Origin: an uncultured Bacilli bacterium
GTDB taxonomy: Bacteria; Bacillota_I; Bacilli_A; RF39; UBA660
Length of the DNA stretch: 64,000 nucleotides
Direction of reading: 5' to 3'
NCBI GenBank assembly: GCA_947628565.1
Contig: CANRAH010000005.1
Span: 1-64,000, forward strand
Positions 27,322-61,853 of this stretch are shown piece after piece. Under the pieces are notes generated by a model. It made no database searches. It had not been told where the DNA came from and was given only the letters and a program-made list of their open reading frames with translations. Made by a program: the position numbers and the translations under genes. Position 1 is the stretch's first letter. Every line of letters starts with the position of its first letter.

Positions 27322-27344
27322 AAAACACCTCCTAATCATTTAAT

Positions 27345-27465
27345 ACCAATAAAAATGTCCTACATACACGTAGGACAAACTGAAACTTATTTTAAGTTCC
27401 TCGGTAGGATATTTAAGAATTCTCACCTACTGTCTACGGTACTATTATTTCCAACTCGAATTTAT
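27345..27465 (-). ncRNA. Ribosomal protein L10 leader
   Basis: minus strand GTAGACAGTAGGTGAG..ATATCCTACCGAGG...GTCCTACGTGTATGTAGGAC. Confidence 0.85.
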
Positions 27466-38399: not shown

Positions 38400-38478
38400 T
38401 TTTAAACTAAGACTCACCATTAAGGTACTTACGTTTCAAAACCTTTTCTGTGTGGTTGTAGAGTGAGGCCCTACACGT
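38400..38478 (-). ncRNA. Ribosomal protein L21 leader (putative)
   Basis: CGTGTAGGGCCTCACTCTACAACC...CCTTAATGGTGAGTCTTAG directly upstream of rplU. Confidence 0.65.
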
Positions 38479-40924: not shown

Positions 40925-41268
40925 ATATTTTATAAGCCATGTTCTGTTCTCCTATATAGGAGCGACAAATATTTATCTACTTAAAACTAAGTCCCTAGAT
41001 TAGTTCATTTCCTTTTCTAGAGTTCCCCTACCAAAATTTGGGTTTCTCACTCGCGGGGTTTACCACGTTCCACTTCCACAATTTCTTGCTTATTCGTCAC
41101 TTTGGCACTTTTATACTTAATCTAACCATATTAAAACTTAGGTTATTTCAGAGCCGTTAGCTTACGCTACCAAAAGTTATTTTTTCCTTTTGCACGAACA
41201 CTACAACCATCTCAGATTGTGTGAGCATGGACTTTCCTCTACATTATAAAAAATGCAGCATTTGTCAA
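40925..41268 (-). ncRNA. rnpB: RNase P RNA
   Basis: minus strand GTAGAGGAAAGTCCATGCTCACA...GGTAAACCCC...GAGAACAGAACATGGCTTATA. Confidence 0.92.
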
Positions 41269-41272
41269 AATA

Positions 41273-41599
41273 TTATTCTTTGCCATAAATTATTTTTTCT
41301 AATTTTGAAATGCGTCTTAATATATCAGAATTAGAAACATTACCGCTACTACTTTCCTCAGATAAAACATCAAGTTTAGTCTTCAAGTTTCTGATTTCTT
41401 GTTTTAGCCTAATATTATCTTCAATAAGATCCTTCTTATCTTTTTCTAATTCACTAATTATAGAATTCATCTCTTCATAATCTTTTATTATAACATCTAA
41501 ATATTTATCAACTTCTTGTGGACTATAACCTCTTGTATTTATTTTAAACTCTTTTTCTAAAATATCATTACTAGTCAAAATTACTCTATCTTTGTACAT
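41273..41599 (-). CDS. gpsB: Cell division protein GpsB/DivIVA family (track ORF starts at 41614)
   Basis: LTSNDILEKEFKINTRGYSPQEVDKYLDVIIKDYEEM. Confidence 0.92.
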   Translation of the reverse strand: MYKDRVILTSNDILEKEFKINTRGYSPQEVDKYLDVIIKDYEEMNSIISELEKDKKDLIEDNIRLKQEIRNLKTKLDVLSEESSSGNVSNSDILRRISKLEKIIYGKE

Positions 41600-58553: not shown

Positions 58554-59045
58554 TCAAAGTTCAAATAAATATATATTTTCTAAATATTTATCTCTAAATA
58601 AACGATTTCCTATATATTTTCCACCAAGATGTTTATAAAAATCATTTGCTGGATTTCCATTTAAACATCCTATAATAATTTTTTTTATTCCATGATTTAA
58701 TATTTTTTGAGTAGCATAATCATATAACAATTTACCATAACCATTTTTTTGATATTCCTTTAGTATATATAAAGAATGTATTTCAGCTGCATTTTCATAT
58801 TCTTTATTTTCTAAAGTGAAATAAACCCATCCAATTATTTTATTATCTAACGTTAAAACATAATAATTTGACTGACTATTAATATTATTTTTTAGTCTTT
58901 CAGCATTTTCTGTTTCTCCATTTAATAAATTAGTTAATAAATCATCATCGACTATTCCTTTGTAAGTGGTATTCCAAACCGTAGCAATACAATGCGCTAA
59001 TTCTTGTGAATCTTCTTTTTTTCTTTTTCTAATTATTGGTTTCAT
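58554..59045 (-). CDS. GNAT family N-acetyltransferase (possible retron accessory)
   Basis: AEIHSLYILKEYQKNGYGKLLYDYA; ATG 26 nt downstream of RT stop with AGGGGAA SD. Confidence 0.85.
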   Translation of the reverse strand: MKPIIRKRKKEDSQELAHCIATVWNTTYKGIVDDDLLTNLLNGETENAERLKNNINSQSNYYVLTLDNKIIGWVYFTLENKEYENAAEIHSLYILKEYQKNGYGKLLYDYATQKILNHGIKKIIIGCLNGNPANDFYKHLGGKYIGNRLFRDKYLENIYLFEL

Positions 59046-59071
59046 ATTATTTCCCCTATTTATAAAATTAA

Positions 59072-60025
59072 TTAATAATAATTTATTAAATTTTCTAGAA
59101 ATTTTTTATATTCATTAAATTCGTTATCATTTTCATTTATTTGTAAAACATACAATATTTTTCCATAAAGTATATTTAAATATTTTAATTTATCAATATT
59201 TATTTTTTTCTTTTCCATATGAGAATTTAAACCAAACTTTTTTATATAATATACTTCTTGTCTTATTGCTTTACGATATTTTGAACTAACTTGTGCTTTT
59301 TCATTTACTATAATTCCTGTTACATTTTGGCTTGCTGATTTATGAACAACATGTATTTTTTTATCATTTAATTCTAATCCCAACTTATATAGCATTTTTC
59401 TAACTTTAATTATTATTTCACTTGGATTAAAATTTCCTGAAAAAGTCATATCATCTGAATATCTTGTATATGATATGTTCTTTTCTTCACACCAATTTCC
59501 CAGTATCTCATCAAATTCTTTCATAACCAAATTAGAAATATATGCAGATGTTGGTGAACCTTGAGTTAAATGCTCATCATATGTACATAAATATGTTAAT
59601 AACATCCCTACAGATTTTGGAAAATATTCTATAGAAAAGCAAGAATTATATATATCTACAAAAAATATATTTTCAAAGAAATCTACAATATCTAATTTCA
59701 ATATTATTTTTTTATTAATATGTGGAATAGCATTATCTTTTAATGATAAACCTTTATGATATGCTTTAGCATATTTTGATATAGATTTATTGTTAAGGAT
59801 ATTAGTTAAAATTTGCTTTTGAATATGCTTTAAAAGTGAACTAGGTTCGTGTATAGTTCTATATTTACCATTCCTTTTTCTAATTTTATATATATTATAA
59901 TTTTTTTCTATATTGTTACTAATAGAATATAATGTTTTTATATACTTCTTTTTATCTTTACAATTAAATAAATCGAGAGATAGTAAAAATTCATTACATT
60001 CTTTTGTTCCAATATATTTCCACAT
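59072..60025 (-). CDS. Retron-type reverse transcriptase (track ORF starts at 60040; SD-supported ATG at 60025)
   Basis: NAIPH (NAxxH), LKLDIVDFFENI, QGSPTSAYISNLVM, YTRYSDDMTFS, NVTGIIVN (VTG). Confidence 0.92.
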   Translation of the reverse strand: MWKYIGTKECNEFLLSLDLFNCKDKKKYIKTLYSISNNIEKNYNIYKIRKRNGKYRTIHEPSSLLKHIQKQILTNILNNKSISKYAKAYHKGLSLKDNAIPHINKKIILKLDIVDFFENIFFVDIYNSCFSIEYFPKSVGMLLTYLCTYDEHLTQGSPTSAYISNLVMKEFDEILGNWCEEKNISYTRYSDDMTFSGNFNPSEIIIKVRKMLYKLGLELNDKKIHVVHKSASQNVTGIIVNEKAQVSSKYRKAIRQEVYYIKKFGLNSHMEKKKINIDKLKYLNILYGKILYVLQINENDNEFNEYKKFLENLINYY

Positions 60026-60041
60026 TTTTACTACCTCCACT

Positions 60042-60199
60042 GAATTGCAGCGCTAATGATATTATAATTTGGAGATGGACTAGCGAAGCTACTACACAAC
60101 GTGTAGATAAGTCCTTTGGAAAATTACAATTAATCGTCTTAACTAATTTAATCCCTTAACGACTCGTTAAAGTAGGAATAAATCCAATCACCACTGCAA
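60042..60199 (-). ncRNA. Putative retron msr-msd ncRNA
   Basis: a1 TTGCAGTG (60192-60199) pairs with a2 CGCTGCAA (60045-60052); msr-like hairpin TTAACG-AGT-CGTTAA (60156-60170); msd-like stem ATTGTAATTT/AAATTATAAT (60121-60130/60061-60070) enclosing GGACT/AGTCC and two hairpins; directly 5' of RT. Confidence 0.8.
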
Positions 60200-60203
60200 A
60201 AAT

Positions 60204-60212
60204 ATTATATCA
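60204..60212 (-). promoter_or_regulatory. Extended -10 promoter of the retron
   Basis: minus strand TGATATAAT (TG-N-TATAAT), ~5 nt before the a1 repeat. Confidence 0.7.
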
Positions 60213-60337
60213 CATAATTTTATTTTTTATATAATTTTATTTTTCATATCTTTTTAATTAAAATAAAATCTCTCTTATCATTAAATATTCTAATGTTTTA
60301 CACTTTTAACTATTATCATTTTATTTAATCATTTTAC

Positions 60338-60589
60338 TTAATTATGATCTTTGACACTTTTTACCTCTTTCAATTCAAATCTATATTTTTGTTTAACATC
60401 TGGATATTTTTTATGATCTACTTCACTCAAAAACATTTCTAAAGGTCTTATATAAAGACTGTTATCTCCATATAAGGCTCTATACACAACATATTTTTCT
60501 TTTGTTTCGGAATGATTAGCAACATCAACGACTAAATAATAATCCCCTTTAAAATGTTTATAAATTCCATTAATTTTTAACTCGTTCAT
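60338..60589 (-). CDS. DUF1653 domain protein
   Basis: [46 protein letters not shown]. Confidence 0.85.
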
Positions 60590-60701
60590 AAAATTATTTC
60601 TCCCTTCATTATATCTTCAGTATACCATATTTTAACAATATGCTTAATTATTTATATAAAATTTTTTTAAAGGTTCAAAGCACAAACTTTATACTTATAT
60701 A

Positions 60702-61853
60702 TTATTTGCTTAATATTTTATCATCAATAAAAACATAATTTAATCTTTTTCCCAATCCACTTAATAACTCATACGTTATTGTTCCAGACTTTGATGCTAT
60801 CATTTCTGCTGTTACTTGATTATCAGCTCCTATTAAAGTAACTATATCCCCCTGTTTAATATTTTTTATATTGGAAACATTAATCACTAATTGATCCATA
60901 CATATCATTCCAATTATTTCTGCATACTCATTTCCAACTAAAACTTTAACATTTTTACATGATAAATTTCTAGGATAACCATCAGCATATCCTATAGAAA
61001 TAGTGGCTATCTTTTCTTTGTTCGATGCTTTGTATTTCCTTCCATAACTTACTGTTTCATTTTTATATATTTCTTTAATGCTTGATACTCTTGCTTTAAG
61101 AGATAATACTGGCAAAAGAGAAATATTTTTTTTACAATATGATTTTAAATCACTATGAACTCCATACATTATAATTCCTGTTCTTACATAATCAAATTCT
61201 AATTCTGAATAATTTAAAACTCCATAACTACTTTGAAGATGAACTTTACCAACATTAATATCGTTAGATTTTAATTCATCAATCAAACTATAAAATCTTT
61301 TAATTTGAAGATTTGTAAATTTAATATCACTTTTCTTATTACTGTCTGCAACACATAAATGAGAAAAAATTCCTAAAACGTCAATATTATCATAATTATA
61401 AATTTGTTTTATAAAATCAATTTTTGAATAATGAATTCCAATTCGATTCATTCCTGTATTTATTTTAATATGAACTTTAAGTTTTTTATTTAATTTAATG
61501 GTAGCTATATTCTTTGCATATTCTTCATCAACTATTGTTTGAATTAAATCATATTCTATAACATATTTTAAATTTTCTATACTAGTATATCCCAAAATAA
61601 GAATATTTCCTTTTATATTATTTTCTCTTAAAGAAATAGCCTCTTCTAAAGTTGCAACTGCAAAATCAAAAATACCAATGTTGTTAAGTTTATGAGAAAT
61701 CTCTATCATACCATGCCCATAAGCATTTGCTTTAACTACCGCCATTATTTTTGTTTTAGGAGAAATTATTTTCTTTATTTCCATAATATTGTGCTTCAAA
61801 TTATTTAAATCTATTTCAACCCAGGCTCTATCCATTAATAATTCATTTTTCAT
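60702..61853 (-). CDS. alr: Alanine racemase
   Basis: MAVVKANAYGHGMIE PLP-Lys motif, RTGIIMYG, SIGYADGYPR. Confidence 0.95.
   Translation of the reverse strand: MKNELLMDRAWVEIDLNNLKHNIMEIKKIISPKTKIMAVVKANAYGHGMIEISHKLNNIGIFDFAVATLEEAISLRENNIKGNILILGYTSIENLKYVIEYDLIQTIVDEEYAKNIATIKLNKKLKVHIKINTGMNRIGIHYSKIDFIKQIYNYDNIDVLGIFSHLCVADSNKKSDIKFTNLQIKRFYSLIDELKSNDINVGKVHLQSSYGVLNYSELEFDYVRTGIIMYGVHSDLKSYCKKNISLLPVLSLKARVSSIKEIYKNETVSYGRKYKASNKEKIATISIGYADGYPRNLSCKNVKVLVGNEYAEIIGMICMDQLVINVSNIKNIKQGDIVTLIGADNQVTAEMIASKSGTITYELLSGLGKRLNYVFIDDKILSK

What the first reader, a model, noticed from the sequence alone, without database searches (positions are those of the whole stretch)
60042..60199. Fold of the candidate msr-msd RNA
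Read on the minus strand: TTGCAGTG (a1) ... hairpin TTAACG-AGT-CGTTAA ... long stem ATTGTAATTT/AAATTATAAT (one G-U) ... inner stem GGACT/AGTCC enclosing hairpins CTACAC-GTT-GTGTAG and TAGC-TTC-GCTA ... CGCTGCAA (a2, 8 bp with one G-U), which ends a few nt before the RT SD GGAGGT. The branched msd tip (two hairpins on one stem) is unusual versus a simple msd hairpin.
Basis: seen in the sequence. Interest (0 to 1): 0.75.

Follow-up and report, generated by a model that had tools for sequence, protein, structure and literature searches.

The report
Solitary retron RNA, forked msd tip
The sequence is a genuine retron RNA template that its neighbouring reverse transcriptase should copy into a small folded DNA; it belongs to a scattered, effector-less family in uncultured gut Bacilli whose RNA fold, including the forked tip, is upheld by evolution and whose compact cassette sits where the host gene's transcription terminator is found in relatives.

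Summary
The region upstream of the RT gene (window 59072-60025, minus) is a retron msr-msd RNA. 52 distinct homologous RNAs were collected, all directly upstream of RT homologues (about 45-85% identical to the window's). In a 37-sequence alignment the proposed helices pair in 96.2% of cells (31-47% when slid), with 90 two-sided compensatory cells against 19 shuffled. The forked tip is real and usual in this family. Hairpin A is nearly invariant; hairpin B varies and, in the DNA strand, often carries a GC-GN(N)A-GC mini-hairpin (21 of 52 members, 1.4 expected, none in the RNA strand). The RT is Ec107-like with retron motifs, under purifying selection. No gene apart from the RT is shared across relatives' surroundings: a solitary retron without linked effector. 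Comparisons with retron-free relatives at lexA and pyrG (both flanks), plus rluB and a lipoprotein gene, show the cassette where a terminator palindrome otherwise stands, as reported for Ec107. msDNA production and function are untested. New variant of a known kind.

The parts
60204..60214 (-). promoter: extended -10 (TGTGATATAAT) placing the RNA start at about a1
   Evidence: sequence; a TATAAT-like box with TG(N) sits at the same place in most relatives
60192..60199 (-). a1 arm TTGCAGTG
   Evidence: helix 1: 96.1% cells paired, 5 of 7 pairs with two-sided changes
60191..60191 (-). candidate priming (branching) guanosine, first unpaired base after a1, context (A/G)G(T/C)
   Evidence: invariant in 37 of 37 (G9); known retrons prime from a G in AGC (PMC6868368). 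Inferred
   Evidence: helix 2: 99% paired, 3 of 3 pairs with two-sided changes
60154..60172 (-). msr hairpin 2, CTTTAACG-AGT-CGTTAAGG; loop region GAGUC conserved
   Evidence: helix 3: 100% paired; stem swaps in relatives, e.g. TTTAGCG/CGCTAA, TTTAGTG/CACTAA, TTTAATG/CATTAA
60121..60130 (-). msd main stem, 5' arm ATTGTAATTT
   Evidence: helix 4: 93.8% paired, 4 pairs with two-sided changes
60061..60070 (-). msd main stem, 3' arm AAATTATAAT
   Evidence: as above
60111..60114 (-). inner stem 5' arm GGAC
   Evidence: helix 5; fifth pair T-A only 19/37
60077..60080 (-). inner stem 3' arm GTCC
   Evidence: as above
60092..60106 (-). tip hairpin A, CTACAC-GTT-GTGTAG
   Evidence: helix 6: 99.5% paired, closing pair C-G to T-A in 9 relatives
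60081..60091 (-). tip hairpin B, TAGC-TTC-GCTA; on the cDNA (plus) strand TAGC-GAA-GCTA, containing GCGAAGC at 60083-60089
   Evidence: mini-hairpin class from PMC4686876
60053..60135 (+). predicted cDNA (msDNA DNA part), about 80-87 nt; 3' end uncertain (about 60130-60139)
   Evidence: inferred from retron anatomy; folds as DNA to stem plus forked tip, z = -2.32
60045..60052 (-). a2 arm CGCTGCAA
   Evidence: helix 1
60034..60038 (-). Shine-Dalgarno GGAGG of the RT gene
   Evidence: sequence; conserved in relatives
59072..60025 (-). retron reverse transcriptase, 317 aa, NAIPH / YSDD / VTG motifs
   Evidence: PADLOC RT_Ec107-like E=3.6e-127, Pfam RVT_1, PDB Ec86 RT 4.9e-32, dN/dS 0.14-0.17 in pairs with the window

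Best explanation
A solitary, Ec107-like retron. SHOWN: a structured RNA (60199 to about 60045, minus strand) with a1/a2 closing stem, two msr hairpins and an msd stem with a forked tip is conserved directly upstream of a conserved retron-type RT under purifying selection; no partner gene travels with the pair; at the sites compared the cassette stands where relatives have a terminator palindrome. INFERRED: the RNA is transcribed from its own extended -10 promoter; the RT binds the msr hairpins, primes from the 2'-OH of G60191 and copies the msd from 60053 to about 60130-60139 on the plus strand, giving an msDNA of about 80-87 nt that refolds into a stem with two small hairpins, one of them a GNA-loop mini-hairpin that is especially stable as DNA. 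LEAST CERTAIN: what it is for. The likeliest role (perhaps one in three) is a phage-sensing RT-msDNA complex whose effector is unlinked, or that acts without a dedicated effector. The confidence given is for the retron msr-msd identity and anatomy, not for the role.
For: Covariation; RT homologues in 20 public contigs, 9 of 397 class genomes and 45 of 388 family genomes, with the RNA upstream of nearly all intact copies; RT family and motifs; purifying selection; invariant G; no shared neighbour; empty sites; GN(N)A motif in cDNA strand 21/52 vs 1.36 expected and 0 in template strand.
Against: No msDNA measured. The single-sequence fold is weak (z = -1.92). No Rfam family matches, so the RNA is not an already modelled msr. 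Most experimentally studied defence retrons have a linked effector and none was found. Nearest-neighbour folding does not show hairpin B to be favoured in DNA over RNA (mean closing-pair probability 0.31 vs 0.35) and hardly forms it in the long-tip relatives.
Confidence: 0.86

Rival explanations
1. A tripartite defence retron of a known type (for example III-A) whose effector gene was overlooked or lies on another contig.
For: RT_III-A models also score strongly (E=3.4e-104); effectors are the rule in studied retrons; the window genome is only 79% complete.
Against: No gene other than the RT is shared by more than 9 of about 65 loci, and the one shared by 9 is the upstream neighbour in a few closely related loci. 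RT_Ec107-like outscores RT_III-A by 75 bits. Many neighbours are housekeeping genes such as lexA, rluB, metK, pyrG, der and ychF.
Confidence: 0.12
2. A structured 5' leader that regulates the RT mRNA and is not reverse-transcribed.
For: It lies just upstream of the SD, and a2 ends 6 nt before it.
Against: Anatomy is that of a retron: closing a1/a2 stem, invariant unpaired G after a1, msr hairpins, long msd stem, retron RT. Conservation of a GN(N)A motif only in the cDNA sense suggests selection on the DNA product.
Confidence: 0.04
3. Rival to the terminator-targeting reading only: the terminator replacement reflects ordinary homologous exchange or drift of short intergenic DNA, not insertion aimed at terminators.
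For: Co-direction with the upstream gene (46/49) does not exceed background (87.6%, p=0.13). Few sites are comparable on both flanks. Inside one genus the retron after pyrG appears vertically inherited and decaying.
Against: At lexA, flanks of 96.5% and 92.7% identity meet a sharp swap of 26 bp for 1211 bp, between the lexA stop codon and the terminator T-run; pyrG, rluB and a lipoprotein gene show the same pattern; Ec107 is reported to replace a palindromic 34-bp intergenic sequence (PMC6868368).
Confidence: 0.4

Closest known systems
Retron-Eco5 (Ec107) and PADLOC RT_Ec107-like retrons
   Same: best and nearly full-length RT profile match (residues 9-312 of 317 on model 2-306 of 307); described as replacing a palindromic 34-bp intergenic sequence with no mobile element nearby (PMC6868368), as seen here
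Type III-A retrons (PADLOC RT_III-A)
   Same: second-best RT profile
   Different: no PRTase or winged-helix partner gene shared across relatives
Retron-Eco1 (Ec86)
   Same: closest solved RT structures (7v9u, 7v9x); general msr-msd anatomy
   Different: RT only distantly related; Ec86 has a linked effector (own knowledge) and none is seen here
d(GCGAAGC) / GNA-loop mini-hairpin DNAs
   Same: GC-GNA-GC or GC-GNNA-GC sequence present in the predicted cDNA tip
   Different: described for synthetic DNA and aptamers (PMC4686876); its presence in msDNA is a prediction here

Membership tests
Retron | Reverse transcriptase with retron motifs NAxxH (region X), VTG (region Y), YxDD | tested here: met
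   NAIPH, VTG, YSDD in the translation; PADLOC, NCBIfam and PDB matches to retron RTs
Retron | Upstream structured RNA with a1/a2 inverted repeats enclosing msr and msd | tested here: met
   covariation in 37 relatives
Retron | Priming guanosine next to a1 | tested here: inconclusive
   invariant unpaired G at 60191 in context (A/G)G(T/C), AGC in some relatives; 2'-5' linkage not testable
Retron | Produces msDNA | not testable with these tools
   needs an experiment
Ec107-like retron | RT belongs to the Ec107-like profile family | tested here: met
   421.9 bits, E=3.6e-127, best of 47 PADLOC families; no tree with Ec107 itself was built
Ec107-like retron | Stands without accessory gene and replaces a palindromic intergenic sequence | tested here: inconclusive
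   met in relatives, but no empty site was found for the window's own copy
Type III-A retron | Linked PRTase and DNA-binding effector genes | tested here: not met
   no shared neighbour
Rfam msr | Match to an Rfam covariance model | tested here: not met
   no match even up to E=5

The most novel reading that the evidence does not exclude
A solitary retron lineage that spreads as a minimal 1.2-kb element (promoter, msr-msd, RT and terminator) by swapping itself for intrinsic terminators between a gene's stop codon and the terminator's T-run, and whose msDNA has been selected as a folded DNA with DNA-specific motifs: a GNA mini-hairpin arm, and purine-rich TGGA/TGRA mismatches in both arms of the msd internal loop.
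Probability: 0.27. Interest if true: 0.78.

Novelty: new variant of a known kind. Interest (0 to 1): 0.52.

Why it matters
Retrons are now understood as RT, RNA and effector defence systems. A family found in about one in nine sampled genomes of one Bacilli family (45 of 388), under purifying selection but without any linked effector, bears on whether RT plus msDNA can act alone or recruit host proteins. The terminator-replacement pattern, seen here at several loci and reported once for Ec107, makes the old question of how solitary retrons move directly testable. A compact forked msDNA may also interest people who use retrons to make DNA in cells.

Tried and rejected
Rfam at gathering and relaxed thresholds: no msr match. 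Linked effector: none shared. Orientation bias towards gene 3' ends: 46/49 looked striking but equals background 198/226, p=0.13, so dropped. DNA-over-RNA preference of hairpin B by nearest-neighbour folding: not seen; I do not know whether the software's parameters include a GNA bonus, and the long-tip relatives have a third arm (TTACAC/TTGCAC) that competes with hairpin A. Empty site for the window's own copy: flanking genes are not syntenic in congeners. Terminator overlapping the RT stop: 25 of 51 loci against 11.4 in shuffles, suggestive only, since AT-rich ends inflate it and mononucleotide shuffling is a weak null. Viral-contig scans gave no answer twice. Phage and plasmid collections hold only distant RTs, under 60% identity. 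Literature for a solitary-retron class or the TGGAA motif: nothing useful in the held library; Mestre 2020 is not held.

Full report
OBSERVATION. The RNA runs on the minus strand from about 60199 (a1) to 60045 (a2), the SD is 6 nt further on, and the RT start codon is at 60025. One sequence alone gives weak support: MFE -40.4 kcal/mol, z = -1.92, 10 of 200 shuffles as good. Comparison was therefore needed.

COMPARATIVE PROOF. RT homologues were found in 20 public contigs, in 9 of 397 genomes of the class including the window's own, and in 45 of 388 genomes of the same family. Directly upstream of nearly every intact copy lies a recognisable version of the RNA, 52 distinct ones in all. On a 37-sequence alignment (A2) the structure pairs in 96.2% of cells; 19 of 39 pairs show changes on both sides; 90 compensatory cells against 19.2 +/- 3.5 in shuffles; sliding the partners by 1-3 columns drops pairing to 31-47%. 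A consensus prediction made without the proposed structure gives essentially the same helices. The structure tested was derived from the window's sequence, which tends to favour it over slid versions, but the two-sided changes are not explained by that.

CORRECTIONS TO THE FOLD. There are two msr hairpins, not one: GGA/TCC at 60175-60185 was missed and is among the best supported. The second msr hairpin is 8 bp. The G just after a1 (60191) is invariant in all 37 and sits where known retrons prime (AGC context; PMC6868368).

THE FORKED TIP. Hairpin A (CTACAC/GTGTAG) is nearly invariant, with its closing pair switching C-G to T-A in 9 relatives. Hairpin B varies in length and sequence. Read in the cDNA sense, 21 of 52 members carry GC-GNA-GC or GC-GNNA-GC, with middle bases A, G, T and C and several GNNA forms, against 1.36 expected from dinucleotide shuffles and none in the template sense. 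GNA and GNNA loops closed by at least two G-C pairs are described as extraordinarily stable, nuclease-resistant DNA mini-hairpins, Tm 78 C for GCGAAGC (PMC4686876). The 52 members share ancestry, so the excess is not 21 independent events, and standard folding parameters do not show a DNA preference. I treat this as a good hypothesis. Likewise, the conserved internal loop between main and inner stem is purine-rich in the DNA strands: TGGA in the left arm and TGRA in the right in most members. That this could stack as tandem G-A pairs is my own inference.

THE RT. 317 aa, motifs NAIPH, YSDD and VTG; PADLOC RT_Ec107-like 421.9 bits against 346.6 for the next family; closest solved structure Ec86 RT. 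dN/dS is 0.11-0.21 in eight pairs, so the protein is kept by selection, although decayed or split copies exist.

NO LINKED EFFECTOR. Within about 1.5-5 kb of some 65 loci, no gene other than the RT is shared by more than nine, and those nine share one upstream gene and are closely related. Neighbours include lexA, rluB, metK, pyrG, der and ychF (names are my reading of the translations). In the window the RT is followed 27 nt later by a GNAT acetyltransferase gene that is not a shared neighbour in the relatives.

WHERE IT SITS. In G428 the cassette lies between lexA and a convergent nucleotidyltransferase gene. G624 has the same lexA protein and no retron. Flanks align at 96.5% and 92.7%, and 1211 bp replace 26 bp taken up by the palindromic terminator AAAAAATACGAGTTATCGTATTTTTT. 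After pyrG, retron-bearing congeners have the cassette next to the stop codon, and G803 has a terminator there with the same downstream gene. After rluB, G291 and G744 carry the retron, G633 and G742 a terminator. After a lipoprotein gene, G546 carries the retron and G754 a terminator, with only the upstream flank compared. Ec107 is reported to replace a palindromic 34-bp intergenic sequence (PMC6868368). A proposed preference for co-directional insertion did not survive the background test, and since many intergenic regions hold a terminator, four sites do not prove targeting.

MECHANISM. Shown: structured RNA, conserved RT, no linked partner, terminator swap at the compared sites. Inferred: own promoter, priming from G60191, cDNA 60053 to about 60130-60139, refolding to a forked DNA. 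Unknown: biological role; phage sensing is likeliest by analogy with other retrons.

VERDICT. Real, correctly interpreted, with small errors. A new variant of a known kind: a solitary Ec107-like retron with forked msd. The forked tip alone is of moderate interest; the solitary, terminator-replacing habit adds most.

Noticed in passing
window 58554-61853: The retron's surroundings look accessory: the alanine racemase (60702-61853; above the NCBIfam cut-off for the VanT-G catalytic domain) is found in 1 of 16 congeneric genomes and the GNAT gene in 4 of 16.
   Followed up: partly
L130, L131 (after pyrG), L029, L064, L066, L067: Decayed copies of the family: RT deleted with ncRNA kept, ncRNA remnant only, or split and frameshifted RTs, suggesting recurrent loss.
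   Followed up: partly
L097 after rluB: At the site that holds the retron in two congeners, G743 carries what looks like an insertion-sequence transposase gene instead of the terminator.
   Followed up: no
long-tip relatives, e.g. L010, L014, L017: The msd tip has a third arm (TTACAC/TTGCAC) able to pair with the 3' arm of hairpin A, so two mutually exclusive hairpins are possible.
   Followed up: partly
RT 3' ends, e.g. L006, L043, L045, L049, L063: The RT stop codon often lies inside an intrinsic-terminator-like hairpin with T-run (25 of 51 loci have such a site nearby, 11.4 expected).
   Followed up: partly
window 40928-41273, 27341-27457, 38400-38467: RNase P class B, L10 leader and L21 leader RNAs.
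   Followed up: no
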